Positions 5,947 through 22,700 of a stretch of 64,000 nucleotides of DNA are shown piece after piece. Where the stretch lies: contig CP022585.1 of NCBI GenBank assembly GCA_002243285.1, positions 3,832,641 to 3,896,640 on the forward strand. The letters are read 5' to 3'. The notes under the pieces are model-generated. The model was given only the letters and a program-made list of their open reading frames with translations, searched no databases and had not been told where the DNA came from. Each line of letters opens with the position of its first letter. Position 1 is the first letter of the stretch. Source of the stretch: Candidatus Fluviicola riflensis (GTDB lineage Bacteria > Bacteroidota > Bacteroidia > Flavobacteriales_D > Crocinitomicaceae). The position numbers and the translations under genes are program-made.

Positions 5947-8900
5947 ATGAAATCAACCATTATTCTGCTTTTAGCGATATTCCTGTTACCTCTGTATTCA
6001 AGTGCAGCGGTAGAAACGGCGGTTAATCGCATCGAGAGTGCCCAGATTACGACATCAGGTTCGCCACAGTTGACAGTATTTGACAATAAATACGTGACCA
6101 TGGCTACTAACAGCAGTTGGGCAACTTTGTTTACCAACTATCGGATTACCAATAAAATTCGTTTAGCAATAAATCCGGAAGTGCTGCAAACCAACAACCT
6201 TTCGGGAGGTGTAACCATTACAATCAAGTACTGGAAATGGGACATCGGCACTAGCGCTTTCGTTACCAGTACCGAATCGAAAACACTGACCATTGATTAT
6301 AATACAACCGCTACCAATATTATCAATGACCTATCAACCTATGTAACCTCCGATGCATTACGAATAGAGGTTTCCATTACATCGGTTAATGGTGGATTAG
6401 ACATAGATGACGCTTACCTGGAAGCGGAAATAGAAACAGAACGCTATTACGCTTTTGACGGAAGTGCACCAACCTCACACACAGTTGCTAAAACAAGTGA
6501 TTATGTCAACTTTGAGTGGACACAAGTTACCGGTGCCGAATACTATGAGCTGGAATGGGTACATGTTAATGATTACAAAGCCAATGATCTTACGAACGCC
6601 TTCGCAACAAGTGACCTGACCTATAATTTCTACCGCAACTCGACTCGGGTGATCATCAAAACACCGTATTATACCATTCCAAGAGTTTTCGACAGAGGGT
6701 ATATCGTGTTTCGCGTCAGGGCAATCGGCGTGGCCGGAACGGGATTTAACTTACGAAAGGAAGGTAGCTGGAGTTTGGGTGAAACCGGATTGATATCAGC
6801 TGCAACTGTGAATACCAATTATGTCTATATCGATACCGAATTTGATACCCAAATGAATTGGGGGCACCAGGTGATGTACGCCGAAGACGGAAAACGATTT
6901 GAAGGGGTTTCCTATGCAGACGGAATCGGAAGAATGCGGCAAAGTGTAGGAAGTAATACCGAAACCGGGCAGGCAATTGTCTCGAATATTTACTATGACG
7001 CGTTCGGGAGGCCCACTATCACCGATTTACCCACACCCGACGATGATGGCCGAATGATTCACCGTCCGGACTTTAATGTGGCGGCGGGTGATACATATTA
7101 TGGGCCTGAGCATTTTGAACAGGTATTTATTGAAGATAACCCGTCGTGTTCGTTTGAAACCACTCCGTTTAGTTCCAGTTACGGTGCAGGAAAGTATTAC
7201 TCGCCCAACAACCCCGACCAGGATGGTGAGAATGTGCGCATTCCCGATGCAGAGCAGTATCCGTTTGCTCGCGTGGAATATATGGACGATCACACCGGAA
7301 GAATCAGAAGGGCCGGTGGTATCGGGCCGGATTTCCAGATTGGTTCCGGGCATGAAACAGAGTTTTTTTACAGTACACCTTCGCAAGAAGAACTTGATCG
7401 TTTATTTGGTTCGGAAGTCGGGTACGCACCCCATTATCAGCGACGGATTACCGTTGATGCCAATGAACAGTTCTATATCGAATATTTCGATATGGCAGGC
7501 AGAGTAGTCGCCAGCGGACTGGCAGGAGCAACACCTGCTAACCTCGATGCGCTGGATAATAACGCAACCTTTACCTTAACCCAAACTATTACACAAGGTG
7601 TAAATGGTGATGTCACACCAACATCCATGACGCTTACCAAACCTCTGACCATTTTTGAAGACGAAGATTATTCGTTTTCCTATGAGTTGGATCCGGGGGA
7701 GTTTACCGACGAAATCTGTGCCCCTGAACTGTGTCTCGATTGCAGGTATGTTCTCACGATCGAAATCACAAAAGAAGAATGTGATGACCTTCCGGTATTT
7801 TCCGAAACAATGTACATCAATGGCGGCGAATACGATGCTATGTGCAACGAAGATATTCCTTTCGATTATGATACAACCATTACACTACTGAAAAACAACT
7901 ATATCCTTACCAAAACATTGACTGTTGATCAGGATGCGATTAATGGTTACTGGTGCACGTACCTCGAAAATAACACATGCGTACCAACGTTTCAGGAACT
8001 GTACAACGAAGCATACGCAAATGCCGATTTCAGCAGCTGCGACATCGAAGAGGAATTTGACGAAGACGACTATTCATGCGATGTCATGCGCGCTATTATG
8101 CTCAACGATGTTTCACCGGGCGGGCAATATGCAGAGTATACTGTTTCGGGGAGTACTTACTCGGCTGCCAATACCATCTCCGTTTTGTATACCGGCGGCT
8201 CACCTGATTTATCCGGTGACTGGCGTACACCATCGGGCGGCATGTACGAAGATGAACTTGGAGCTCAGGCCTGGGTAGAAGTGCAATTGATTAGTGTAGG
8301 CGTTTACGCACCACCGGTTGAAATCACAGCTGTTCCCGTTCTTGTAGATGCTGATAATAATATTTACAAAGTAAAACCCGAAGAACTGGCCGACCTGGCC
8401 GATTTTGTGGTCGGGTTTCAGAATAGCTGGGCAGAAGCATTATTGCCGTACCATCCGGAATTCTGTTATCTCGAGTATTGTGAGGCTAATGAAGCTTCAC
8501 ATGCTTACGATGCTGCGATGGGCAGTATCACCTCCTTTTCGGAGGCGTGCGCTGGTGGTTATTTTGCTCCGTTGGGTTTTATTGATTTGACGGTGAATTA
8601 CGACACTCCGGAGATCTATTCGGGCTGTGCTGATACTGGTGCCATCGATCCGTTTTTTGAGCCGTTAGATATTTTAAATCCGCTATATGTGGAAATGGAA
8701 GATCGAATGACAAACTACATCACGATCAGCGGTGTATCGGTTTCCATGTGGGAATATGCCGCCATGCTGGTGCATTGTGAAGAACCATATATTACATTTT
8801 CGGGAACCACTCCTATCTCTTGCCTGGAAAATTATCAGCCGGGAGAGTGTGATCTTGACATGATCTGGATTACTTTCCGTGATTTGTATCTCGCCGAAAA

Positions 8901-11900
8901 AGCCCGGATCTATGCTGAAGCCGAATCGGCATTTATAGCAGGTGAAGCCTGTGCCACACTTACTGCCACCATTGGTGATGAAGATCCTGGCAATCCGTTT
9001 GGCGAGGCCATTCCGCGCTGGGGATTTTATGACGACATGATTGCGACTTATACCAGTACAACTGATATCCAGAACGAGTTCGACGCCCAAAGCGAAGCCG
9101 CTTGCGAAACGGCATGTACGGCCTATGCCAAAGACTGGATGCTGCTGCTTTCAGGATGCGACATTGACCCTGCCGATACAGCAGATTTACGTCTTGATTT
9201 ACAAGCATTGTGTGAATTTGGCTGTGGTGATGATCATCCCGCAGGTGCAACCACATTACCTGCTTCTATTCCGGGCGGCACTTATGCTTTGCCAAGCGGT
9301 ATCGGAAGTGTGGGCAATGGAGCAACAATCAACGATGTTCTGGCGCTTTATGGTTATTCGGAAAGTGATCTTTGTACGGAATTGCTTATCAGTGATCCGG
9401 GCCCTTACCAGGAATCACTTGTGGAAGATCTTTACCTGGATGAATGCGGATGCGAATTGCTGTTGACCACCAAAGACCAGTTTGAAAATGGAGTGGTTCC
9501 TGCCGGAATTGTAACAGTGGAACAATTACTGGAATACAATACAGGCCTCTCGATGGAAGACATCGATGCACTAATTTGCGCTTGTGATGATGCTACCGGC
9601 AACGAATGGAATCCGGGAGGGTATGAATGGTCTGGTGGCGAAATTGAAACCATACTCGGTTGGGAAGAAGTGGTGCCACAGCAACTTACCTGCGATGCCT
9701 GCGTGCAATGCGAGGATGTGGCTACCGGTGTTACTGATCTGGAAACCCGTTTCGGTTCCGAAATTGACGAATCCCCGAATTACGAAGTTATTTTGACTAA
9801 TTACTTAAACGGATTGTTTGATTTTGACCTGACATACAGCTATTATGCCGAGTTTATCCTGAAATGCAATGCAACCAGCCTGAACCCGATCTGTGAACCG
9901 ACTCCCGAATTGCTTGCATGGAGAGACGTGATGAACTTACTGGCCCATCGCGGTCAACTGAATGTGGGAGATACATTGAACCTGCTTACCGAAAACATCG
10001 TGTACAAAGAAAGTGAACTGTATGAATACCTGCTTGCAACCGGTTATTATGCGGAAATTGATGGAAATACGTTGCATCAGACTTTTGTAAAAAACGAAAC
10101 AGGATTGGCGTGTACTACTTCCCTCACGCTTCCGATAGAAGCAGATTTTACCTTTGACGACATTGTAGCCTTCGGGAACATCGTACCTGAAAACACCGGA
10201 TGCGAAGAAGTAGCCGAAAACTTTACCGTTGAAGTAAGTTATTATGCGTGCGGGATTTTAAAAACGGCTACCTTGACAGGACAGACCGACTGTTTCCCGA
10301 TTCAAACCTGTTATTGTGGTGGTGATTTGATGCTTTGCAACGAAACGGTAAACGAACAACTGGCTGATGAAACACCGTGTTACGAACCCATACTTTCGCA
10401 GCTTTACCAGGATGTAACCGAACTGTACGAAGAAACCATTGCTGCAGCCAAACAGGAATTCGTGGCAGCGTACAATACACAATGTGCAACTGCTTTTGAA
10501 ACGGAACTATTGGAATATACAGGGCCATTTAATCAATACCAGTATACGCTGTTTTATTATGATCAGGCCGGAAATCTGGTCAAAACCGTAGCGCCGAATG
10601 GTGTGTCACCGCTTGTTTCTACCGCAACGGTAGTTACCAGCCGCGATGCTACCACGGACCTTGATAACCAGGACCCGGCTGTAGTACCAACGCACGGTTT
10701 CGAAACCGAATATACTTACAACTCATACAGCCAGTTGGTGGAAACCACCAACCCCGATCAAACAGGAGCGACTAACTTTTTCTACGACCGCTATGGCCGT
10801 ATGGTAGCCTCTCAGAATCCGGTGCAGGCAGATGAACATAAGTACAGCTACGTCTTGTATGATGTGCAGGGAAGGCCTGTGGAAGTGGGCCAGATTGATA
10901 TAGATGTAACGCCAACGCCGATTGCAGCTCTCTCCGAAAGTTTGCACCTGAAGGTGAATGACCTCGGGGCCGCATTTAAAACATGGGTCTACAGCGGGCT
11001 TCGCACCGAAGTGACTTTTACGGTTTACGATAAGTCCATGTCTGTGACCGTGGCCGGCAAATTTGCCACCGGAACCCAGCAAAACCTACGTCTGCGTGTA
11101 GCCAGCGTGGTGTATTTTGATGCAGTCAGTGCCGGCACCATGCCCACAACCGGTTATGTTTCGGCAACGCATTATTCGTATGACTTGCACGGAAATGTGA
11201 TTGAAAGCCTACAGGATGTGCCGGAACTTTCGCCGGTGCAGCAGGATATTAAATCGACCCAATACCAGTTTGAACTATTGAGCGGCAACGTGAAAAAAGT
11301 AGAATACCAGAAAGGGGAACGCGATCGCATGACCCACGAGTATGTCTATGACAAACTCAACCGCCTCACCGAAGTGTTTACGTCTACCGATGCAGAAGTG
11401 CACAAAAGCCGCGAAGCGCATTACCGTTATTTCGATTACGGACCGTTGGCACGGGTTGAGATTGGCCAGCACAAAGTGCAGGGCAATGATTTTACCTATA
11501 CGATCCAGGGATGGCTCAAAGGTATGAACAGCACCACGCTCGACCGCACCCGCGATGCGGGCAAAGACGGCGGCACCGATTACCTTGCTTCCAACCCGGA
11601 AGCAAACACCTGGTTTGCCCGCGATGTCACCGGTTACATGATGGGTTATTACACCGACGATTACAAAAGTATCGGTACCACTACTTTTGAAGCGGCCATC
11701 GGCACCAGCAACCCGCTGAGCAGTGCCATCAAATCGCTGTACAACGGCAATATTGCCTACACCACCACGGCTATTGACGGCTATGATATACAGGCAGGTG
11801 TATACACCTACGACCAGCTGCAGCGTCTCAAGGCGATGAATGTCTACCGCTCCGCCACGATCCAGAGTGACAATGACTGGTCTAACTCTGCCAATACCAC

Positions 11901-14181
11901 CGAATACGAGTCGAAGTATACCTATGATCCCAATGGCAATCTCCAAACACTCGTCCGGAACGGTATTCCGGGTTCGGGAATGGGGATCAGTATGGATGAT
12001 TTTACCTACAATTATACATCGGGGACCAACCGTTTGCACCAGGTAACTGACGCCGTTACGGCAGCCAGTACCACTGCTTATACGGAGGATATCAACGACG
12101 GACAGGGCACCAATAATTACGTCTACGACAAACTTGGGCAGCTCGTTGCTGATAACACTTCCTTAGAAGAACAGGATTATGAGTGGCGATTTGGTGATAA
12201 AAAACTCAACTTGCAACGCAGTTCAACACAACAATTGGAATTCGTATACAATCCATTAGGACAACGGGTATTAAAAATCGTGAAACCGGTTTCAGGCGGT
12301 GTACCGCTACATCAGAGTGCTTCAGTGAGCTGGGATTATACCTATTATGCGTATGATGCCAATGGACAGGTAATGGCCATCTATGATGTGACCATGAACA
12401 ATTATGATCCGGACGATGAGATCAACATAGCTGAAAACTCCGAACAGATCATTTACGGTGCTGGCAGAATCGGTGTGATCAAACCTGACAAGGTTACGTA
12501 TACCAACCAAATGAGTTTAGCACCCGAAGGCCCGATTTGGGAGAATGAATTGGGTAGAAAAAACTACGAACTCACCAACCATCTGGGCAACGTAAATGCT
12601 GTAATCACCGACCGCAAAACGGTCAACGGTTCTTATACCGGCTTCTCGTTTGCAAGCAGTGTTGAAGGATGGGCGGCAGGTGCTGATGCTTCAGTGAGCC
12701 AGAGTGGTGGTTTACTCAATGTATCTACCACACCAGGTTCCAATAACAGTGCTTACAAAGTGATGACCACCACAGTGGGTGAGCATTACATTGTAACGGT
12801 CAAAGCCAATAAGGGCACGACAACCGGCTTAAAACTCTACCTGTTTGGTATCAGCACAACAACCCTGGCAGACGGCGAGGCCAGTACGATTTCGTTTACA
12901 GCCATTTCAACCAGCACGGCCTTGATCATACAACCCCTGCTGACAACAGGTTCGCATACGTTCAGTATCGATACAGTTGGTTTTACTCCTAAATCGGTTT
13001 ACGAGGCAACGGTGATCATGAAAAGTGATTATTATCCGTTCGGTATGCAAATGCCGGGACGTTTTTCCAATACTGGAGACTACCGTTTCGGCTACAACGG
13101 TATGGAAAAAGACCCCGAAATGAAAGGCGATGGGAATTCTTACACTACCGAGTTCAGGCAGTATGATCCGAGGTTGGGGAGATGGATGAGTCTTGATCCG
13201 TTGATGCTAATGTTCCCTGAACAATCACCATATTGTGCATTTGATAATAATCCTGTTTTATTTATTGATCCTTATGGATTGAGTGCCACTAATGGAGAAG
13301 GTGAACCACCAACGTTGAACGGTACTGAAACCGAAGGGCAACTATCAGATGATGGAGAGTGGATTATTAACGTAGACCCTAGTAGTGGCAAACTTGTTTG
13401 GCAAAAATTCTCAACACTTGAAGAAGTCGTAATACTTACAACAGGTCCTTGTACTCTGAATCTGTTGTTAGATATGAAAGCTTTAATGAAGGATTATCAC
13501 CATAATACGAAAGATTATTATCGCTTTGGTACTCTTGGCGCTCCTGCAAAGGATGTGTTTTATGAGGCGTACAAGATTTGGGATGAATGGTCTTCGTGCA
13601 TGGGACTTAAGATTACCATGGAGGATATTCATGAAGCTTTAGCTATACTAGGTAATCTTCCGGTTGTTGGTGAAATGTTTGATGCTGCTAATGCAATTCT
13701 TTATGTTGCTGAGGGCGATTATGAAAATGCTCTTTGGTGTGCTTCTTCAATGATTATTCCCGGAGGATCCGCACCTATTTTTGCCAAAAAAATGGCAAAA
13801 GATGCAATTCAAGATACTGGTGAAAAGGTTGGAAGAGAAGTTGGACAGGAAATTGCTGATGGCGCAACAAAACCCTATACTACAAGTCGCCCTAGTTATG
13901 GCAAGAATCAGGTTGAGGAAGTTTGGGAAAATGCGAAACATAGTGATGGAAATGTTTATGATCCTAATACTGGGGAGATAATTCATTGGGACAGGTCAAA
14001 ACCAAGAAACGGACAATGGGATATGGGACATAAGAAGAATCATGAATATAGAACGTTAAAGCAAGATTATTTAAGTGGAAAGATATCTAAAGAAGAGTTT
14101 TTGAAAGAGTATCGTGATCCAAATAATTACCAACCAGAGTTGCCAAAGAATAATAGAAGTCATAAATTTGAAAAAAAGTAA
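5947..14181 (+). CDS. Rhs polymorphic toxin with GH-E-type HNH/Endo VII nuclease tip
   Basis: 2744 aa. An N-terminal signal peptide (MKSTIILLLAIFLLPLYSSA) is followed by an FN3-like segment (about 160-280). Then come YD repeats, a long acidic Cys-rich insert (about 590-1540), more YD repeats, and the Rhs core near 2400-2440 (DPRLGRWMSLDP, then NPVLFIDPYGL). Everything after the core is the variable tip. The last ~90 residues contain WDMGHKKNHEY and PELPKNNRSH, matching the GH-E family of HNH/Endo VII nucleases, so the predicted activity is DNA cleavage in a competitor. The DNA becomes clearly more AT-rich from about 13200, as expected for an exchanged tip. The ankyrin gene 8 bp downstream is the likely immunity gene. 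Rhs identity is certain; the nuclease class is strongly supported by motif; the delivery route is not visible here. Confidence 0.93.
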   Translation: MKSTIILLLAIFLLPLYSSAAVETAVNRIESAQITTSGSPQLTVFDNKYVTMATNSSWATLFTNYRITNKIRLAINPEVLQTNNLSGGVTITIKYWKWDIGTSAFVTSTESKTLTIDYNTTATNIINDLSTYVTSDALRIEVSITSVNGGLDIDDAYLEAEIETERYYAFDGSAPTSHTVAKTSDYVNFEWTQVTGAEYYELEWVHVNDYKANDLTNAFATSDLTYNFYRNSTRVIIKTPYYTIPRVFDRGYIVFRVRAIGVAGTGFNLRKEGSWSLGETGLISAATVNTNYVYIDTEFDTQMNWGHQVMYAEDGKRFEGVSYADGIGRMRQSVGSNTETGQAIVSNIYYDAFGRPTITDLPTPDDDGRMIHRPDFNVAAGDTYYGPEHFEQVFIEDNPSCSFETTPFSSSYGAGKYYSPNNPDQDGENVRIPDAEQYPFARVEYMDDHTGRIRRAGGIGPDFQIGSGHETEFFYSTPSQEELDRLFGSEVGYAPHYQRRITVDANEQFYIEYFDMAGRVVASGLAGATPANLDALDNNATFTLTQTITQGVNGDVTPTSMTLTKPLTIFEDEDYSFSYELDPGEFTDEICAPELCLDCRYVLTIEITKEECDDLPVFSETMYINGGEYDAMCNEDIPFDYDTTITLLKNNYILTKTLTVDQDAINGYWCTYLENNTCVPTFQELYNEAYANADFSSCDIEEEFDEDDYSCDVMRAIMLNDVSPGGQYAEYTVSGSTYSAANTISVLYTGGSPDLSGDWRTPSGGMYEDELGAQAWVEVQLISVGVYAPPVEITAVPVLVDADNNIYKVKPEELADLADFVVGFQNSWAEALLPYHPEFCYLEYCEANEASHAYDAAMGSITSFSEACAGGYFAPLGFIDLTVNYDTPEIYSGCADTGAIDPFFEPLDILNPLYVEMEDRMTNYITISGVSVSMWEYAAMLVHCEEPYITFSGTTPISCLENYQPGECDLDMIWITFRDLYLAEKARIYAEAESAFIAGEACATLTATIGDEDPGNPFGEAIPRWGFYDDMIATYTSTTDIQNEFDAQSEAACETACTAYAKDWMLLLSGCDIDPADTADLRLDLQALCEFGCGDDHPAGATTLPASIPGGTYALPSGIGSVGNGATINDVLALYGYSESDLCTELLISDPGPYQESLVEDLYLDECGCELLLTTKDQFENGVVPAGIVTVEQLLEYNTGLSMEDIDALICACDDATGNEWNPGGYEWSGGEIETILGWEEVVPQQLTCDACVQCEDVATGVTDLETRFGSEIDESPNYEVILTNYLNGLFDFDLTYSYYAEFILKCNATSLNPICEPTPELLAWRDVMNLLAHRGQLNVGDTLNLLTENIVYKESELYEYLLATGYYAEIDGNTLHQTFVKNETGLACTTSLTLPIEADFTFDDIVAFGNIVPENTGCEEVAENFTVEVSYYACGILKTATLTGQTDCFPIQTCYCGGDLMLCNETVNEQLADETPCYEPILSQLYQDVTELYEETIAAAKQEFVAAYNTQCATAFETELLEYTGPFNQYQYTLFYYDQAGNLVKTVAPNGVSPLVSTATVVTSRDATTDLDNQDPAVVPTHGFETEYTYNSYSQLVETTNPDQTGATNFFYDRYGRMVASQNPVQADEHKYSYVLYDVQGRPVEVGQIDIDVTPTPIAALSESLHLKVNDLGAAFKTWVYSGLRTEVTFTVYDKSMSVTVAGKFATGTQQNLRLRVASVVYFDAVSAGTMPTTGYVSATHYSYDLHGNVIESLQDVPELSPVQQDIKSTQYQFELLSGNVKKVEYQKGERDRMTHEYVYDKLNRLTEVFTSTDAEVHKSREAHYRYFDYGPLARVEIGQHKVQGNDFTYTIQGWLKGMNSTTLDRTRDAGKDGGTDYLASNPEANTWFARDVTGYMMGYYTDDYKSIGTTTFEAAIGTSNPLSSAIKSLYNGNIAYTTTAIDGYDIQAGVYTYDQLQRLKAMNVYRSATIQSDNDWSNSANTTEYESKYTYDPNGNLQTLVRNGIPGSGMGISMDDFTYNYTSGTNRLHQVTDAVTAASTTAYTEDINDGQGTNNYVYDKLGQLVADNTSLEEQDYEWRFGDKKLNLQRSSTQQLEFVYNPLGQRVLKIVKPVSGGVPLHQSASVSWDYTYYAYDANGQVMAIYDVTMNNYDPDDEINIAENSEQIIYGAGRIGVIKPDKVTYTNQMSLAPEGPIWENELGRKNYELTNHLGNVNAVITDRKTVNGSYTGFSFASSVEGWAAGADASVSQSGGLLNVSTTPGSNNSAYKVMTTTVGEHYIVTVKANKGTTTGLKLYLFGISTTTLADGEASTISFTAISTSTALIIQPLLTTGSHTFSIDTVGFTPKSVYEATVIMKSDYYPFGMQMPGRFSNTGDYRFGYNGMEKDPEMKGDGNSYTTEFRQYDPRLGRWMSLDPLMLMFPEQSPYCAFDNNPVLFIDPYGLSATNGEGEPPTLNGTETEGQLSDDGEWIINVDPSSGKLVWQKFSTLEEVVILTTGPCTLNLLLDMKALMKDYHHNTKDYYRFGTLGAPAKDVFYEAYKIWDEWSSCMGLKITMEDIHEALAILGNLPVVGEMFDAANAILYVAEGDYENALWCASSMIIPGGSAPIFAKKMAKDAIQDTGEKVGREVGQEIADGATKPYTTSRPSYGKNQVEEVWENAKHSDGNVYDPNTGEIIHWDRSKPRNGQWDMGHKKNHEYRTLKQDYLSGKISKEEFLKEYRDPNNYQPELPKNNRSHKFEKK

Positions 14182-14189
14182 TAAAAGTT

Positions 14190-14666
14190 ATGGAAGTAAA
14201 TATTGATGATCTTTTTCAAGTCGTAAGACTTAAAGAGAATGAAGCGTATTTTAAGTTGAAGAAATCCATAGACATGAATGTAAAAAATTCTTCAGGTCGA
14301 TCTTTACTGCATGAGGCGGTAGCTTATCATAATAATGCTGTTGTTAGTGATTTGATTAAAAGCGGTATAAATGTTAATTGCACTGATAAGGAAGGTCAAA
14401 CAGCGCTTCACTATTCGGCTGCTATTACGAATATTCCGGCTGCGAAATTAATTCTTGAATCAGGCGGTGACGTCAATATAGTCGATGTTTATGGAAATAA
14501 TGCTATGTGGACCGCTGTTTTCAACTCAAGAGGAAATTATGAGATGGTTAAACTGTTTAAGGAGTATTCAGGGGATCATTTACATAGTAATAATAACTCT
14601 AAATCTGCATATGATTTTGCAAATCAAATAAATGATTTAGAGTTAGTTAAAATTCTAAAATCATAA
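14190..14666 (+). CDS. Ankyrin-repeat protein, predicted immunity to the Rhs nuclease
   Basis: 158 aa with about three ankyrin repeats. Visible signatures are SGRSLLHEAVAYHNNAV, EGQTALHYSAAITNIPAAK and YGNNAMWTAVFNSRG, with the usual LLI..G.DVN-type helix ends. There is no signal peptide, so it should be cytoplasmic. It starts 8 bp after the Rhs stop and shares its AT-rich composition. Ankyrin proteins are known as immunity proteins in polymorphic toxin loci, particularly beside HNH/Endo VII-type nucleases, so neutralising the GH-E tip is the natural assignment. That role is inferred from position and family. Confidence 0.85.
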   Translation: MEVNIDDLFQVVRLKENEAYFKLKKSIDMNVKNSSGRSLLHEAVAYHNNAVVSDLIKSGINVNCTDKEGQTALHYSAAITNIPAAKLILESGGDVNIVDVYGNNAMWTAVFNSRGNYEMVKLFKEYSGDHLHSNNNSKSAYDFANQINDLELVKILKS

Positions 14667-15494: not shown

Positions 15495-15523
15495 TGTGGA
15501 GATTCCGGAGTAACTGACCATCT
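15495..15523 (-). repeat. Solo inverted right end of the IS21-like element
   Basis: The plus strand reads TGTGGAGATTCCGGAG and then TAACTGACCATCT. This is the reverse complement of the right end of the complete elements at 16819 and 19577, with a few substitutions. It is therefore a solitary end in the opposite orientation to all other copies. Nothing of the rest of the element is next to it. Confidence 0.7.
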
Positions 15524-15694
15524 CATTCGGTAATGTTCGAAGTGTGTTGATAGCTAGACGTTTTGGATTTAATCATCACATAAACAACTATTTAACAAAA
15601 TAAAAACAACGCGTATAAGGGGATGTTAAACTTCCCCTTTGTAGTTGAAAGGGTTTTAAACGATCTGAAATGAGCTCAAATCAGACCACGTGTT
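15524..15694. repeat. Degenerate intergenic repeat B, copy 1
   Basis: No gene seen. It shares CATTCGGTAATGTTC and GCGTATAAGGGGATGTTAA with 17517-17665 (CATTCGGGTAATGTTC, GCGTATCAGGGGATATTTAA), in the same order and at similar spacing. A short hairpin AAGGGGA/TCCCCTT lies at 15617-15639. It is probably a relic of a mobile-element end that accompanies the immunity cassettes. Confidence 0.5.
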
Positions 15695-15804
15695 TGTATA
15701 TTCCAGTCGTGTTGACCACCCATTTCCGGAATACATTGACCACCTGCTGATTTGTTTAGACGGTAGGATTGTGTTGGATTGTAGTAGTTTTTAGTGGTGG
15801 TCAA
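15695..15804 (+). repeat. IS21-end MITE copy 1, right end missing
   Basis: It begins TGTATATTCCAGTCGTGTTG and matches the complete copies for about 110 bp, including the core with TTTGTTTAGACGGTAGGATT. It breaks off after GTGGTGGTCAA, and the right-end motifs present in other copies are absent. Sequence immediately to the right encodes the tail of an HNH nuclease, so a recombination or deletion joined the element core to toxin DNA. Confidence 0.85.
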
Positions 15805-15867: not shown

Positions 15868-16593
15868 ATGGGCGATAATAAATTTTTAGACTTAATTAAA
15901 GCTAACATAACAAAACATGGTTATCACGTAACCATTGTGAATAGTGATACTGATCCTAGGTATTGTTACACCATTGGATTAAACGAGTCATTAGGTTTTG
16001 AATTAGTTATTGCAGGAGGGTACTTTTATCTAAAAGATGACTTATTGTACATTTTAGATTTATTAGTTTCCAATTTGAAAAAAGATGGTAGTCTGATTAA
16101 TTCTCATATTCAAACCTCGAAATTTGGGAGTTTTACATTCATTAGGATTCATGATTCTTGGAATGACTTAATGCTTTTGGGTGTTTCTGACTACTATAAG
16201 ACCGATACGATTAAATCTTTTCAGATAATCCCTGATGGTGAACATTTTACTCTTGAGATTCCAGATATGTCTAAAAAAATTAATGGTGAATCATTCCCGA
16301 TATGGAAATGGTTGATTCATGAATGGGATTTAAAAGTACCTGAAACATCTAAAGCCATCACGAATTTAGCAGCGCTAAAGGGAGAGAAAATAACGGAAGT
16401 AATGAGATGGGAAGTAGATAATTGGGAGATGTTTGCAGGTTCTGGTCCTGATATAGACGAAAATGATATAAGAGTAGTACCTATCGGGATGATTTTGGGG
16501 ATTGATAAGACTATTAATGACGCATTAGACTTAAAAATTGAAAAAGGTTTTTGGAGAAAAAATGATGATCTTGTATTGCATGATTGGGGATAA
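15868..16593 (+). CDS. DUF4262 protein, orphan immunity candidate
   Basis: 241 aa. The first ~115 residues match DUF4262: HGYHVTIVNSDTDPRYCYTIGL, then GFELVIAGGY. The C-terminal half contains a second conserved-looking stretch (WEMFAGSGPDIDENDIRVVP). There is no signal peptide. DUF4262 proteins are found beside polymorphic toxins, and here the gene sits 3 bp after the tail of an HNH nuclease, so it is most likely that toxin's immunity protein retained after the toxin was lost. The ATG at 15868 is fixed by this junction. Confidence 0.85.
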   Translation: MGDNKFLDLIKANITKHGYHVTIVNSDTDPRYCYTIGLNESLGFELVIAGGYFYLKDDLLYILDLLVSNLKKDGSLINSHIQTSKFGSFTFIRIHDSWNDLMLLGVSDYYKTDTIKSFQIIPDGEHFTLEIPDMSKKINGESFPIWKWLIHEWDLKVPETSKAITNLAALKGEKITEVMRWEVDNWEMFAGSGPDIDENDIRVVPIGMILGIDKTINDALDLKIEKGFWRKNDDLVLHDWG

Positions 16594-16733: not shown

Positions 16734-16818
16734 AGTAAAGCTGTTTAAGTCCACTTCAAAATATTTTGCTAAACTGCAAAGCGTCGTAAATGCAATATCA
16801 CGCTTGCCCTGTTCTATT
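16731..16818 (-). pseudogene. Truncated XRE-type HTH regulator, C-terminal end only
   Basis: Read on the minus strand up to the stop at 16731 the frame gives QIEQGKRDIAFTTLCSLA and then KYFEVDLNSFT. The IEqGKrd..f.tL..LAk.fev pattern is the end of a Cro/C1-type HTH domain. The N-terminal part is gone and the break coincides exactly with the outer base of the MITE at 16819. It is a gene fragment cut by insertion or by recombination at the element end. Confidence 0.75.
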
Positions 16819-16971
16819 TGTATATTCCGGTGGTGTTGACCACCCAATTCCGGAATACATTGACCACCTGCTGATTTGTTTAGACGGTAGGATTGTGTTG
16901 GATTATAGTAGTTTTTAGTGGTGGTCAATCGAAACCGGAGCGAGGTGGTCAGTGGCTCCGGAATCTCCACA
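16819..16971 (+). mobile_element. IS21-end MITE copy 2, complete
   Basis: 153 bp. The left end TGTATATTCCGGTGGTGTTG/ACCACC is followed by an inner copy AATTCCGGAATACATTGACC/ACC. The right end, read inward on the minus strand, is TGTGGAGATTCCGGAGCCAC/TGACCAC, followed by an inner motif ending TTGACCACC. Paired outer and inner copies of TTCCGG-N-TGACCACC at both ends are typical of IS21-family termini. There is no room for istA or istB. No clear target duplication was seen. Confidence 0.82.
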
Positions 16972-17010: not shown

Positions 17011-17508
17011 ATGATAACAATTGAAAAAACAATTAAAGAGCTTTCAAAGTTCTCAAATCAAATACTAGAATTCAATAAGCCTGTTGAGCCTGTGCTCATA
17101 AAAGAATTTGAGAATAAATATGGTTTAACTCTTCCAAATGATTATAAATTTCTTTTGGAAACGACAAATGGATTTTCTTTAATTGGCACTAGGGTTCTTG
17201 GGTTGCATGGAAACGAGAATATTGATTCATTAGAGATGGTTTATAAATTTGAACATTTTGAAGTGATTAATCCGCAACCTACTTATTTAATCCCATTCTG
17301 TAATGACGGTAGAGGAAATTTTTATTGTTTTGATACACTAAAGCAATCAAAAGATGGAAACTCATGTTCAATTGTTTTTTGGCAATCCGATATTGATTAT
17401 TCTAATCAAGAACCAGAAATTGTTAACGAAAACTTGTCAGATTGGATCGACGAAGTTGTAATACAATGGACTCTCGAAGATTATGATTATGATGGCAACG
17501 AAAAATAA
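17011..17508 (+). CDS. SUKH (SMI1/KNR4) family immunity protein
   Basis: 165 aa. The SUKH fold signature is clear: KEFENKYGLTLPNDYKFLLE, then TNGFS and, later, LIPFCNDGRGNFYCFD and SDWIDEVV. There is no signal peptide. SUKH proteins are the commonest immunity family for polymorphic nuclease toxins. The gene stands alone behind a MITE and a nine-residue possible toxin tail, so it looks like an orphan immunity gene. Its AT-richness matches the rest of the cassette and differs from polA. Confidence 0.88.
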   Translation: MITIEKTIKELSKFSNQILEFNKPVEPVLIKEFENKYGLTLPNDYKFLLETTNGFSLIGTRVLGLHGNENIDSLEMVYKFEHFEVINPQPTYLIPFCNDGRGNFYCFDTLKQSKDGNSCSIVFWQSDIDYSNQEPEIVNENLSDWIDEVVIQWTLEDYDYDGNEK

Positions 17509-17516
17509 GGTTACAC

Positions 17517-17664
17517 ATTCGGGTAATGTTCCAGTAGCGGGTAGTGTTTCAGAGTAGTTGATGGAGGCTCTCTTTTAATTCAAAGCGCCTTGTTTTCAAT
17601 CAGATAACGTTTTGTGTAAAAGTGCGTATCAGGGGATATTTAAGTATCACTGAAGTGTAGAAAG
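17517..17664. repeat. Degenerate intergenic repeat B, copy 2
   Basis: It shares CATTCGGGTAATGTTC and GCGTATCAGGGGATATTTAA with 15524-15694. The part around 17536-17562 (GTGTTTCAGAGTAGTTGATGG) also looks like a decayed form of the inverted right end seen at 15495. No gene is seen before the small ORF at 17665. Confidence 0.45.
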
Positions 17665-17802
17665 ATGCCACAATCAAAAATAAAGACCACAAATGAAACC
17701 TCGTGTTTCAGGGTTGTTGATGGACACGGAAATCAATGCGAATGCGGTAAAGCGTTGATTAAAAATGGAAAGACATTAAAAATCAAGTATGGTTATTTAT
17801 AA
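17665..17802 (+). CDS. Small ORF, possible toxin tail before an immunity gene
   Basis: 45 aa from ATG, open back to 17644. It contains DGHGNQCECGKALIKNG, a CxC with an adjacent His, and ends in a basic/aromatic tail (KIKYGYL). Its stop overlaps the next gene by 14 bp, the coupling expected between a toxin and its immunity gene. I do not recognise the family. It could be a toxin C-terminal relic with a fortuitous ATG or a small gene of its own. Confidence 0.4.
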   Translation: MPQSKIKTTNETSCFRVVDGHGNQCECGKALIKNGKTLKIKYGYL

Positions 17803-18259
17803 GATAACATTGGATTTATTTGGAGACAATTTTTCTCCGAATAAAATTTTAGACCAAATAGAACTCAACCCTTTAATAGTTGATTCTAGTGAACGTGGTG
17901 ATAAGATATGGCCCGGGCAAGATGAAGAGATTGATTTTGGAAAGATCTCAGTACTTAATCCCTGTACATATGGATTACAACATGATAATTGGGAATATGA
18001 AGAGTGGTATGTTCAGTTTATTGAAAAAAATCATACGCTTCTCAAACTTCATGGGGTTGATGAGATACATTTTTTTATTGATGTATTCTATTCTGGGGAT
18101 CAATGTAATATTGAAGTATTCAATAAAGAAATATTTAAGCGTTTAAATAAACATATAACATTTTCGATACCATTAAGTGTGTATCACTTAAAACAAAAGG
18201 AAATTAAAGAAATGCTTTTAGAAGTGGGATTTACTAAAAAGGAAATAAGCAGTTTATAG
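17789..18259 (+). CDS. DUF4279-like orphan immunity candidate
   Basis: 156 aa. The N-terminus (IYKITLDLFGDNFSPNKI) and the following LNPLIVDSSERGDK resemble the start of DUF4279 proteins (Y.l.l.Gd.l.P..i...L...P......Gd). The middle carries WEYEEWYVQFIEK. No signal peptide is present. It overlaps a small ORF upstream and is followed 7 bp later by MITE copy 3. Its place in the cassette suggests immunity; the family assignment is a weak visual match. Confidence 0.65.
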   Translation: MVIYKITLDLFGDNFSPNKILDQIELNPLIVDSSERGDKIWPGQDEEIDFGKISVLNPCTYGLQHDNWEYEEWYVQFIEKNHTLLKLHGVDEIHFFIDVFYSGDQCNIEVFNKEIFKRLNKHITFSIPLSVYHLKQKEIKEMLLEVGFTKKEISSL

Positions 18260-18266
18260 GGTAGTG

Positions 18267-18419
18267 TGTATATTCCAGTCGTGTTGACCACCCAATTACG
18301 GAATACATTGACCACCTGCTGATTTGTTTAGACGGTAGGATTGTGTTGGATTGTAGTAGTTTTTAGTGGTGGTCAATCGAAACCGGAGCGAAGTGGTCAG
18401 TGGCTCCGGAATCTCCAAA
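18267..18419 (+). mobile_element. IS21-end MITE copy 3, complete
   Basis: 153 bp, same orientation and architecture as the copy at 16819. It starts TGTATATTCCAGTCGTGTTG. The terminal CTCCACA is changed to CTCCAAA. It lies 7 bp after the preceding stop codon. No transposase gene. Confidence 0.82.
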
Positions 18420-18534: not shown

Positions 18535-18981
18535 ATGATATTAAAAATAGAAGATGTATTAAAATTTGGAGATGTTCTTTCGCTGAAGTTAAATGTATCC
18601 ACTCAAGAACAAGTTTTAGATTTATTGGGGAATTGCGATGAAATAGATGAAAACGATTATTCGATAGATTATTATTGGGACAATGTTTGTTTTTCATTTG
18701 ATATAAAACAAAAGACGCTTTTAAAAGTCAAGATCAAATTTGAAGATGATACAAAATATAAGGTAGATTTTTTGTCTGAGGAATTGTGTTTTCAGAAAGA
18801 GATTAAGTTGGAAAGTATATTTCTTTTTTTAAATCATCTTCAAATCAATTTTCATTGTGTGAATTCAGAAATTGATTTCGATTATTTATTTATTAATACA
18901 ATTGATAATATTAGAATTACTTATTATTTACCTTGGTCATCATTAATTGATATATCATTGGTGGATGGTATATCAGGTTAG
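18535..18981 (+). CDS. Unrecognised orphan immunity candidate
   Basis: 148 aa, very AT-rich, acidic, no signal peptide or membrane segment. Visible features are VLKFGDVLSLKLNVSTQEQV, then LLGNCDEIDENDYSIDYYWD and a C-terminal PWSSLIDISLV. I cannot assign it to a named family. It sits between a complete MITE (18267) and a solo MITE end (19002), the same arrangement as the recognised immunity genes, so immunity is inferred from context only. Confidence 0.6.
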   Translation: MILKIEDVLKFGDVLSLKLNVSTQEQVLDLLGNCDEIDENDYSIDYYWDNVCFSFDIKQKTLLKVKIKFEDDTKYKVDFLSEELCFQKEIKLESIFLFLNHLQINFHCVNSEIDFDYLFINTIDNIRITYYLPWSSLIDISLVDGISG

Positions 18982-19001: not shown

Positions 19002-19027
19002 TGTATATTCCGGTCGTGTTGACCACC
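19002..19027 (+). repeat. Solo left end of the IS21-like element
   Basis: TGTATATTCCGGTCGTGTTG followed by ACCACC is identical to the first 26 bp of copy 5 at 19577. The match then stops abruptly. The following bases read KYKARF-stop ending 3 bp before the Imm26 ATG, conceivably the last residues of another lost toxin. Confidence 0.75.
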
Positions 19028-19053
19028 CAAAGTATAAAGCAAGATTTTGATTT

Positions 19054-19518
19054 ATGGCTAAGAAGGTAAAATCGAAAAGTGGTGATGTTTTTAAAATCCC
19101 ACTATTAAATGGAGAAGTTTGTTATGGTCAGGTGTTAGATTTTATGATGCCAAATATCATACGGATTGCTCTTTTTGAAGGAACGTATGGTGCAAATGAA
19201 CTAATTGATCCTAATCAGGTCGTTCGTCTTAAGGCTTATTCAAGAATAGCAACAGATAAGCATTTCATCAATGCTGGTGAGTGGCCTATTATTGGTAATG
19301 TCGAAATTTTGATACCGATTTCATCTTTTCCAAATGAAGAATTTAGAAAAGATGATTGGGTTGGAGCAGTTCACTATTCTGCAACACTAGTTGAATCCTT
19401 TGTTAATGCTTATTATGGTTTAAAAGCTTGGGATATGTATTATGAACCTAATTATTTAGATAAATTTCTAGTAAATCCAAACGAGAAACCTAATAATGTA
19501 ATTTACGAGAAACTGTAG
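19054..19518 (+). CDS. Imm26 family immunity protein
   Basis: 154 aa. The N-terminus (KSGDVFKIPLLNGEVCYGQV) has the Imm26 pattern of a basic start, GDvf.iPL.dG and a Y/G-rich strand. IINaGEWPIIG-like (FINAGEWPIIG) and DDWVGAVHY follow. There is no signal peptide. Imm26 proteins are immunity partners in polymorphic toxin systems. No intact toxin precedes it, only the solo MITE end, so it is an orphan. Confidence 0.8.
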   Translation: MAKKVKSKSGDVFKIPLLNGEVCYGQVLDFMMPNIIRIALFEGTYGANELIDPNQVVRLKAYSRIATDKHFINAGEWPIIGNVEILIPISSFPNEEFRKDDWVGAVHYSATLVESFVNAYYGLKAWDMYYEPNYLDKFLVNPNEKPNNVIYEKL

Positions 19519-19576: not shown

Positions 19577-19729
19577 TGTATATTCCGGTCGTGTTGACCA
19601 CCCAATTCCGGAATACATTGACCACCTGCTGATTTGTTTAGACGGTAGGATTGTGTTGGATTGTAGTCGTTTTTAGTGGTGGTCAATCGAAACTGGAGCG
19701 AGGTGGTCAGTGGCTCCGGAATCTCCACT
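19577..19729 (+). mobile_element. IS21-end MITE copy 5, complete
   Basis: 153 bp. It starts TGTATATTCCGGTCGTGTTG and ends GGCTCCGGAATCTCCACT. The internal core is nearly identical to copies 2 and 3 (one T-to-C change in the TAGTAGTTT segment). This is the last copy before the cassette gives way to polA. Confidence 0.82.
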
Positions 19730-19895: not shown

Positions 19896-22700
19896 CTAGT
19901 GCGCATCCAACCAATTATCCGCCAATTCCATTTCCACTTCCATCGGAACGGCCAACTGAATGGCACCTTCCATCGCGGTTTTTACCAGTTTTTTCATGAC
20001 TTCTTCTTCGCCTTTGAGAATATCGAACACCAACTCATCGTGTACCTGTAAGATCATTTTGGATTGTACGTTGGCTTCTGTCATCGCTTTGTCGACTGCT
20101 ACCATCGCCAGTTTCACGATATCAGCTGCCGAGCCCTGAATGGGTGCATTAATGGCATTTCGTTCGGCAAAACCACGTACCACTGCATTGGCAGAGTTAA
20201 TGTCAGGAAGGTAACGGCGGCGCTGCATGATCGTTTCCACATAACCGTTTTCGCGCGCGTTTTTCACTGCGTTGTCCATGTAACCTTTGATGGTGGAATA
20301 TTGTGCAAAATAGCTGTCGATGATTTGTTTGGCTTCGGTGCGACTGATTCCCAGGTTTTGTGACAACCCGAAAGCCGATTGACCGTAAATAATTCCGAAG
20401 TTCACCGCTTTGGCCGCACTTCGTTGCTCTTTAGTCACTTCTTCCAACGGCGTATGGAATACTTTCGAAGCGGTTGCTTTGTGAATATCGACACCATCTT
20501 TAAACGCCTGAATCATTGATGTATCGTTGCTCAACGCCGCAATTACACGCAATTCGATCTGGGAATAATCGGCCGACATCAGTTGATGATTGGTATCACG
20601 GGCAATAAATGCACGACGGATTTCCTTTCCGCGGTCGGTGCGAATCGGAATATTCTGCAAATTGGGATTGTTGGAACTCAAACGTCCGGTTGCCGTAACG
20701 GTTTGCATAAAACTCGTGTGAACGCGGCCGTCTACCCGATCCAGCATCGTAGGAAGCGGATCTACATACGTCGATTTCAGCTTACGCATCTGGCGGTAAT
20801 CGAGGATCATTCCGATAATCGGATGATCGCTTTTATGCTGTTGCAAAATATCTTCTGAGGTGGCGTATTGACCTGTCTTCGTCTTCTTCGCTTTCGACGA
20901 AATCTTCATGTGATCAAACAATACTTCGCCCAGTTGTTTCGGAGAATCGAGGTTGAAATCCATTCCGGCTTCGGCTTTGATGCTCGTTTCCAGTTCGCCG
21001 GTTTCCATTTCCAATTGTTTGGAATAGTTTTTCAAATGATCCACATCAATGGCCACACCTTCGTTTTCCATTTTCGCCAACACGGTCACCAACGGCATTT
21101 CAATCGTGTGGAACAAATGACGCAGGTGATCTTTCTCGATTTGCGGTGCAAACAATTGTTTCAGCTGGAACGTAATATCGGCATCTTCACAGGCGTAATC
21201 CACAATTTGTTCCTGCGGTAAATCGCCCATATTTCCCTGGTTTTTGCCTTTCTTCCCTATCAGTGTTTCGATACTAACCGGCTGGTATTGCAAGTAATAT
21301 TGCGCCAGGAAATCCATTCCCTGCTTGGCTTCGGGTTGAATGAGGTAATGCGCAACCATCGTATCGAACAACGGTCCGTCTAACTGCAAATCGTACCGCA
21401 TCAACACTTTCATGTCGTATTTCAGGTTGTGCGCGATTTTCTCAATGGTTTTCGACTGAAAAAACGGTGCAAACTCGTGAATGATTTTTTTAGCGGCATC
21501 GAACTCTTTCGGGAACGAAACATAATAGGCTTCGCGCTCTTTAAAACAGAAGGAAGCTCCTACCAAATCGGCATGCATTGCTTCGATATCAGTTGTTTCC
21601 GTATCAAAACACACGGAAGTTTGCTTCATCAGTTTTGCCAGTAATTCCGCACGTTCTTCCGGCAGCGAAACATGGTGGTAGCTTGGTTTTTCGGTCGCGA
21701 TGGTCTTGTAACCGGCGGTTGGAGAAGCTTGCTGCACCTCCACCAGGCTTTGCGTACCAAACAGATCCAACTGGCCGTTTTCTCCGTTAGCAGACGAGGT
21801 CACCACGATTTCTTCTCCGATTACGCGTTTTGCGAGATTACGGAATTCGAGTTCGGTAAAAATTTCCTTTACTTTTTCGGTATCGGGTTTGTCCAGACGC
21901 AGATCAAGCGGATCAAACGGCACCGGAACATCTACAATAATGGTAGCCAGCATTTTGGAAAGTCGTCCCTGTTCTTCGAACGCGATCACGTTTTCCTTCA
22001 TTTTTCCTTTCAGGTCGTCCGTGTTTTTGAACAATTCTTCCATGGAACCGTAATCCTGGATGAGCTTTTTGGCTGTTTTTTCACCGACTCCGGGAATTCC
22101 AGGAATATTATCGACCGCATCGCCCCACAAACCGAGAATATCGATAACTTGCATCGGGTTGCTGACTTCGAATTTCTCGCAGACTTCCTTCACGCCCATT
22201 ACCGAAGCAGGATCACCGCCCCGGCCCGGTTTGTAGATAAAAATATTTTCACTGACCAACTGACCGAAATCTTTATCGGGCGTCATCATATAAGTGATAA
22301 AACCTTCTTCTTCGGCGCGTTTGGCTAATGTTCCGATAATATCATCCGCTTCAAACCCTTCGAGCAATAATACCGGAATGTGGAATGCTTCCAAAATGCG
22401 TTTGATCGGTTCGATCATGGAACGGATATCTTCGGGCATTTCGTCGCGATTGGCTTTGTAATGCTCGTAATCTGCCGTTCTGTTGGTTGCTCCGCCCGGT
22501 GCGTCGAATACCACAGCCAAATGCGTAGGTTGTTCTTTTTGAATTACATCGATCAATGCATTGGTAAAACCGAATGCCGCAGAAGTGTTCTGGCCTTTTG
22601 AGTTGACCCGTGGATTTTTGGCAAATGCAAAATAAGCGCGGTAAATCAAGGCGAAGGCGTCTAATAAAAAGAGTTTTTTTTCTGCAACCGGAGTAAGCAT
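19896..22700 (-). CDS. polA: DNA polymerase I
   Basis: 934 aa, full length for the family. An N-terminal 5' nuclease (LFLLDAFALIYRAYFAF; GFEADDIIG; GVGEKTAKKLI) is followed by a 3'-5' exonuclease and an A-family polymerase. The proofreading site is intact: FDTETT near 367, AHNLKYDMK, and YACEDADITF. Polymerase motifs are SADYSQIELR (A, ~707), RSAAKAVNFGIIYGQS (B, ~765) and VHDEL (C, ~885). Function is Okazaki-fragment processing and repair synthesis. It is transcribed towards the immunity cassette and shows the higher GC of the core genome. Confidence 0.98.
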   Translation of the reverse strand: MLTPVAEKKLFLLDAFALIYRAYFAFAKNPRVNSKGQNTSAAFGFTNALIDVIQKEQPTHLAVVFDAPGGATNRTADYEHYKANRDEMPEDIRSMIEPIKRILEAFHIPVLLLEGFEADDIIGTLAKRAEEEGFITYMMTPDKDFGQLVSENIFIYKPGRGGDPASVMGVKEVCEKFEVSNPMQVIDILGLWGDAVDNIPGIPGVGEKTAKKLIQDYGSMEELFKNTDDLKGKMKENVIAFEEQGRLSKMLATIIVDVPVPFDPLDLRLDKPDTEKVKEIFTELEFRNLAKRVIGEEIVVTSSANGENGQLDLFGTQSLVEVQQASPTAGYKTIATEKPSYHHVSLPEERAELLAKLMKQTSVCFDTETTDIEAMHADLVGASFCFKEREAYYVSFPKEFDAAKKIIHEFAPFFQSKTIEKIAHNLKYDMKVLMRYDLQLDGPLFDTMVAHYLIQPEAKQGMDFLAQYYLQYQPVSIETLIGKKGKNQGNMGDLPQEQIVDYACEDADITFQLKQLFAPQIEKDHLRHLFHTIEMPLVTVLAKMENEGVAIDVDHLKNYSKQLEMETGELETSIKAEAGMDFNLDSPKQLGEVLFDHMKISSKAKKTKTGQYATSEDILQQHKSDHPIIGMILDYRQMRKLKSTYVDPLPTMLDRVDGRVHTSFMQTVTATGRLSSNNPNLQNIPIRTDRGKEIRRAFIARDTNHQLMSADYSQIELRVIAALSNDTSMIQAFKDGVDIHKATASKVFHTPLEEVTKEQRSAAKAVNFGIIYGQSAFGLSQNLGISRTEAKQIIDSYFAQYSTIKGYMDNAVKNARENGYVETIMQRRRYLPDINSANAVVRGFAERNAINAPIQGSAADIVKLAMVAVDKAMTEANVQSKMILQVHDELVFDILKGEEEVMKKLVKTAMEGAIQLAVPMEVEMELADNWLDAH

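What the first reader, a model, noticed from the sequence alone, without database searches (positions are those of the whole stretch)
16819..16971. A transposase-less element built from two IS21-family ends
Each end carries an outer and inner copy of TTCCGG-N-TGACCACC, the multi-repeat structure of IS21 termini, and only ~50 bp separate the ends. Three copies are nearly identical, so movement or recombination was recent. IS21-type MITEs are rarely described.
Basis: partly seen in the sequence, partly recalled or inferred. Interest (0 to 1): 0.6.

Follow-up and report, generated by a model that had tools for sequence, protein, structure and literature searches.

The report
IS21-derived mini-transposon in immunity-gene arrays
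A 151-base mobile-DNA remnant with both ends of an IS21 transposon but no transposase has been copied between toxin-immunity genes of this bacterium, where it may help reshuffle its stock of antidotes.

Summary
The feature at 16819-16969 is 151 bp, runs 5'-TG...CA-3', and has two TCCGG/TGACCACC repeats per end, 23 bp apart, as published for IS21 ends. A scan of one genome for each of 84,980 species found the same end in 26 stretches, all Bacteroidota; two carry inverted ends 2.6 kb apart around istA and istB. The own genome shows no istA/istB. It has seven two-ended copies and six fragments: two clusters and one lone copy. The two subfamilies are 71-74% alike, yet their transposase-binding boxes are 92% alike, so the element probably spread as a MITE. 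None of the seven has a target duplication, but 13 of 17 full relatives lack one too. Two of four cassettes have duplication-like repeats facing inward, hinting at cassette entry by recombination at the elements (post hoc). The strict mini form was seen only in this genome. New variant of a known kind.

The parts
16819..16969 (+). two-ended 151-bp mini-element, reference copy (L1-L2, 51 bp, R2-R1)
16819..16868 (+). left terminal repeat pair L1-L2 (TCCGG boxes 23 bp apart, each followed by TGACCACC)
16920..16969 (-). right terminal repeat pair R1-R2, same spacing on the - strand
18267..18417 (+). two-ended copy, 96.7% identical to the reference
19577..19727 (+). two-ended copy, 97.4% identical to the reference
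15695..15804 (+). truncated copy: left end plus middle, right end lost after the first GTGGTCAA
15497..15524 (+). solo outer right repeat (R1 only)
19002..19030 (+). solo outer left repeat (L1 only)
5947..14181 (+). Rhs/YD-repeat toxin gene with C-terminal GH-E (HNH/EndoVII) nuclease, heading the array
14190..14666 (+). ankyrin-repeat ORF, likely immunity gene of the Rhs toxin (inference)
15868..16593 (+). DUF4262 ORF, array cassette
16734..16818 (-). HTH_3-like remnant cut off at the element's left end (weak match, E 0.003, below cut-off)
17011..17508 (+). SUKH-family immunity ORF
17789..18259 (+). 156-aa ORF, no Pfam match, array cassette
18535..18981 (+). 148-aa ORF, no Pfam match, array cassette
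19054..19518 (+). Imm26 immunity ORF

Best explanation
It is a miniature, transposase-less IS21-family element (an IS21 MITE) of 151 bp. It keeps complete double-repeat left and right ends (L1-L2, R1-R2) around a 51-bp middle and lacks istA/istB. Most likely an IS21 element once present supplied IstA and IstB in trans and spread it, mainly into the AT-rich arrays of immunity-type genes behind two Rhs toxin loci. Insertion-linked deletions and recombination between copies then removed target duplications and left fragments. Shown: end anatomy, identity with ends of real istA/istB elements, near-constant length, sharp TG/CA borders with unrelated flanks, no istA/istB found in this genome. Inferred: mobilisation in trans, deletion-linked loss of duplications, and the present role as dispersed homology in the arrays.
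For: Same paired ends in 26 stretches of a collection with one genome for each of 84,980 species, all titled as Bacteroidota groups. In L074 and L077 inverted ends bound stretches of 2618 and 2620 bp; the L074 ORFs match IstA (PF22483 3.8e-14, rve) and IstB (PF01695 2.6e-69); L077 istA is broken. IS21 ends are published as two direct repeats, each with two GC-rich boxes, 23 bp apart, and IstA needs both (PMC10122671, passages). The mini-element has this spacing at both ends. Seven two-ended copies, six of 151 bp and one of 152. Between the two subfamilies the boxes agree at 48 of 52 positions, end spacers at 35 of 48, the middle at 29 of 51; Fisher p 0.00016 for boxes against the rest. Flanks of the copies are unrelated up to the TG/CA borders. 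13 of 17 distinct full IS21 relatives also lack a duplication; 4 of 17 have 6-7 bp. ISPve1 (IS21) gave deletions in 16% and simple insertions in 7% of clones (PMC3281130 section 22).
Against: No target duplication in 7 of 7 two-ended copies. No empty site found: for the lone copy, congener matches stop inside the neighbouring gene. No istA/istB found in this genome, so no current source of transposase. No full IS21 with exactly the TGTATATTCC / TGGAGATTCC end pair was found, so the parent is not identified. Local spread could partly be gene conversion or recombination instead of transposition.
Confidence: 0.78

Rival explanations
1. The element now works as, or was spread as, a recombination joint: immunity cassettes enter as circles or tandem pieces by homologous recombination at resident copies, so the repeats form a crude, recombinase-free cassette platform.
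For: Of 4 adjacent element pairs around one cassette, 2 have matching flanks that face inward (ATCAA exact at L035 13739/14201; AATTAC/AATAAC at window 19002/18417); random pairings reach 2 of 4 in 71 of 20,000 draws. A mixed copy at L035 13623-13739 carries a window-type inner repeat. Co-oriented, AT-rich array.
Against: The flank test was chosen after seeing the data; 90 pairings gave 3 hits and the other 2 adjacent pairs gave none. Copies sit between unrelated genes, and the lone copy has no partner nearby.
Confidence: 0.25
2. Independent internal deletions of a full IS21 left several remnants; there is no mini-family that spread as such.
For: The own genome has no full IS21, and fragments exist.
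Against: Six two-ended copies of 151 bp and one of 152 share the same arrangement and a recognisably related middle, which separate deletions would not give.
Confidence: 0.05
3. The repeats are RNA or DNA hairpins (terminators, REP-like structures or attC-like sites) selected for structure and not for transposase binding.
For: Strong folds: z -4.1 and -4.3 against shuffles.
Against: Any element with long inverted ends folds so. No Rfam match; no terminator-like site inside a copy. Box positions and 23-bp spacing equal those of IS21 ends, including elements with istA/istB.
Confidence: 0.05
4. It is the intergenic repeat of a rAID-type (tyrosine-recombinase) orphan-immunity system.
For: Co-oriented short AT-rich genes, including SUKH, separated by conserved intergenic sequence, as described for rAID (PMC12247911 passages).
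Against: No tyrosine recombinase among the array ORFs scanned; the repeat is explained by IS21 ends. The rAID intergenic motif itself could not be compared.
Confidence: 0.05

Closest known systems
IS21 family insertion sequences (IS21, IS5376, ISPve1)
   Same: Two direct repeats per end, two GC-rich boxes per repeat, 23-bp period, terminal CA (PMC10122671 passages)
   Different: No istA/istB; 151 bp instead of about 2.6 kb; no 5-8 bp target duplication in 7 of 7 copies
Bacterial MITEs (for example MITEPsy1, 100 nt, related to ISPsy2)
   Same: Short, IS-type ends, several near-identical copies (PMC3189936 passages)
   Different: MITEPsy1 gave 4-nt duplications in all insertions seen there; here none. 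The ends are IS21 double repeats; no IS21 MITE was seen in the listings
Polyimmunity loci of polymorphic toxin systems
   Same: Tandem co-oriented, structurally unrelated immunity genes including SUKH (PMC3482391 section 39)
   Different: Those loci are said to have small intergenic distances and sometimes adjacent XerC/D genes; here 151-bp IS21-derived elements lie between genes and the array follows a Rhs toxin gene
rAID orphan-immunity arrays of Bacteroidales
   Same: Co-oriented short immunity genes with conserved intergenic sequence (PMC12247911 passages)
   Different: No tyrosine recombinase seen; repeat has IS21 ends
H-repeats at E. coli rhs loci (recalled, not looked up)
   Same: IS-type DNA associated with Rhs loci
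   Different: H-repeats carry a transposase-like ORF of another IS family (recalled)

Membership tests
IS21 family (ends) | two direct repeats per end, each with two GC-rich boxes, about 23 bp apart | tested here: met
   published description
IS21 family (ends) | same ends found flanking istA and istB | tested here: met
   L074, L077:
IS21 family (autonomous element) | carries istA and istB | tested here: not met
   151 bp; no istA/istB found in own genome
IS21 family | 4-8 bp target-site duplication | tested here: not met
   0 of 7 two-ended copies; 4 of 17 full relatives have one
MITE | short, two transposase-type ends, no transposase | tested here: met
MITE | several copies of fixed length at unrelated sites | tested here: met
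   7 two-ended copies, six of 151 bp, one of 152; flanks unrelated
MITE | moved in trans by a related transposase | not testable with these tools
   needs an IstA/IstB assay
Polyimmunity locus | four or more tandem co-oriented immunity genes | tested here: inconclusive
   SUKH, Imm26, DUF4262 and unassigned ORFs, all on +; only two have established immunity families
rAID | tyrosine recombinase next to the array | tested here: inconclusive
   none among the ORFs scanned; not every ORF of the neighbourhood was scanned

The most novel reading that the evidence does not exclude
IS21-derived mini-elements act as exchangeable joints of a Rhs-linked immunity-gene bank: new antidote cassettes are captured or lost by recombination at, or IS21-type deletions next to, these elements, giving an integron-like platform without an integrase.
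Probability: 0.2. Interest if true: 0.7.

Novelty: new variant of a known kind. Interest (0 to 1): 0.45.

Why it matters
IS21 ends are well studied in structure, but I saw no IS21-type MITE in five literature searches of the held library. How a rAID array gains a second copy of an immunity gene is called not yet clear in a 2025 preprint (passage). A mobile repeat at many cassette borders gives a concrete, testable route: recombination or IS21-type deletion at shared elements.

Tried and rejected
Empty-site search for the lone copy in the genus: 12 of 14 genomes (own included) have a match, but none runs across the insertion point. The strict mini pattern in other genomes: own genome only, 1 of 399 (order) and 1 of 395 (phylum) (sets overlap). 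No similar stretch in plasmids or phages. Rfam: nothing. Terminators: none inside copies. Target duplications of the copies themselves: none. An earlier end scan used a too narrow expression and missed most ends; it is superseded. The three PF01695 hits (open frames of 481, 390 and 846 aa, partial matches; the first is over the cut-off) were read as other AAA+ proteins, not IstB, from frame length and partial match; they were not scanned further. For the full-IS21 duplication count I dropped one duplicate row (L121 is taken as the same record stretch as L077: equal contig length and flanks), leaving 17 of 18; borders were set by motif, so 4 of 17 is a lower bound. Three further copies in G301 have 6-8 bp duplications but unrelated ends and are left out of the 17.

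Full report
Observation. The window holds three 151-bp copies (16819-16969, 18267-18417, 19577-19727; 96.7-97.4% identical) and three fragments: 15695-15804, 15497-15524 (outer right repeat only) and 19002-19030 (outer left repeat only). Each end has an outer repeat TCCGG-N6-TGACCACC and an inner one TCCGG-N7-TGACCACC, 23 bp apart, and each end begins 5'-TG. Against a consensus of 20 distinct IS21 ends the ends of the four main copies score 35-38 of 51; the best of 20 mononucleotide shuffles of the window reaches 29. The own genome has 16 matches to the outer motif at up to 1 mismatch and 0 to the reversed control.

Where else. The own genome (4,551,443 bases, one contig) has a second cluster at 1.041-1.046 Mb (three two-ended copies and three fragments, L035) and a lone two-ended copy at 1.669 Mb (152 bp, L036). 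Copies of the two clusters are 70.9-73.5% identical to each other; within clusters identity is 96.7-98.0%. PF20041 finds three large Rhs-type loci; two of the three carry a cluster, and the third (3.673 Mb) shows no match.

What the ends are. An exact scan of genome contigs with the double-repeat pattern gave 26 stretches, all titled as Bacteroidota groups. Many lie at contig ends, as repeats do. L074 and L077 have both ends, inverted, bounding 2618 and 2620 bp, around IstA and IstB (L077 istA is interrupted). Further istA/istB matches lie in other stretches with such ends. IstA relatives occur in 38 of 396 class genomes at E 1e-60, not in the own genome; PF01695 gives three partial hits there, read as other AAA+ proteins, and PF22483 none. 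Published structure work describes this anatomy: L1/L2 and R1/R2 repeats, two GC-rich boxes each, repeats 23 bp apart, IstA needing two complete repeats (PMC10122671, passages seen). It follows that the two-ended window copies keep what IstA needs, and the solo outer repeats do not (inference).

Why a MITE and not scattered remnants. All seven two-ended copies share one arrangement, a related middle and one length (six 151, one 152). Between the two subfamilies the transposase boxes agree at 48 of 52 positions, the end spacers at 35 of 48, the middle at 29 of 51 (Fisher p 0.015 boxes against spacers, 0.00016 boxes against all else). The ends were thus kept while the rest drifted. The four changed box positions are all in the right end of the second cluster. 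Flanking DNA is unrelated right up to the borders, so copies did not spread by duplication together with their neighbours.

Target duplications. None of seven two-ended copies has one. Of 17 distinct full IS21 relatives read at motif-defined borders, 4 have 6-7 bp (CTTAAAC, GGCTAC, GTATAT, AGCTTGT) and 13 have none. Absence is therefore common in this group. A studied IS21 element, ISPve1, gave insertions with unidirectional deletions of 0.5-4.5 kb in 16% of clones against simple insertion in 7% (PMC3281130 section 22, read in full). An adjacent remnant fits this: an HTH_3-like piece ends at 16818 (E 0.003, below cut-off). Two short open pieces next to L035 12974 and 14225 look like toxin tips only by eye and have no Pfam match.

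Setting. The window cluster lies between an Rhs toxin gene with a GH-E nuclease tip (5947-14181) and polA (19896-22700, recognised by eye from the translation). The genes between are co-oriented: ankyrin, DUF4262, SUKH, Imm26 and unassigned ORFs. The stretch 14-20 kb is AT-rich (29-40% G+C per kb, against 37-51% and mostly 41-48% in the rest of the window). Such arrays are known as polyimmunity loci (PMC3482391 section 39) and resemble rAID arrays (PMC12247911 passages). In the second cluster most array genes have no Pfam match, so their immunity role is inferred from position.

A hint of cassette entry. If a circle carrying a gene and an inserted element recombined with a resident element, the duplication would face inward around the gene. 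Of four adjacent pairs, two show this: ATCAA exact (L035 13739/14201) and AATTAC/AATAAC (window 19002/18417). Random pairings reach two of four in 71 of 20,000 draws; chance per pair is 0.013. This was noticed after the fact and may be chance. A mixed copy at L035 13623-13739 with a window-type inner repeat, and a window-type piece at 13559-13590, point to exchange between the two subfamilies.

Alternatives. The copies fold well (z -4.1, -4.3), as any long inverted repeat does; there is no Rfam match and no terminator inside a copy. The strict mini form was found only in the own genome (1 of 399 and 1 of 395 genomes, overlapping sets) and not in plasmids or phages. The double-repeat end pattern with up to two mismatches occurs in 5 of 240 family genomes, the own genome included, and in none of the 13 congeners.

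Verdict. A real, well-defined IS21-derived mini-element, now orphaned, concentrated in Rhs-linked arrays.

Noticed in passing
window 17540-17563; L035 13500-13523: A second repeat (GGTAGTGTTTCAGGGTAGTTGATG) is shared by the two Rhs arrays and found nowhere else in the genome at up to 3 mismatches.
   Followed up: partly
L035 9527-10816: A single-ORF rve/rve_3 transposase gene lies between the second Rhs gene and its array.
   Followed up: no
L036 10001-10080: A stretch of about 80 bp is repeated many times in the own genome and in several congeners, REP-like or IS-like.
   Followed up: no
L137 2917-5387: A viral contig (IMG/VR) carries istA and istB with the same double-repeat end.
   Followed up: partly
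L037 1494-1590: In a same-family genome a multi-repeat IS21-type end without detectable istA/istB cuts an AAA+ (DnaC-like by eye) ORF and is followed by an orphan ORF.
   Followed up: partly
G000:C1:3673116: A third large Rhs-type locus has no copy of the element.
   Followed up: no
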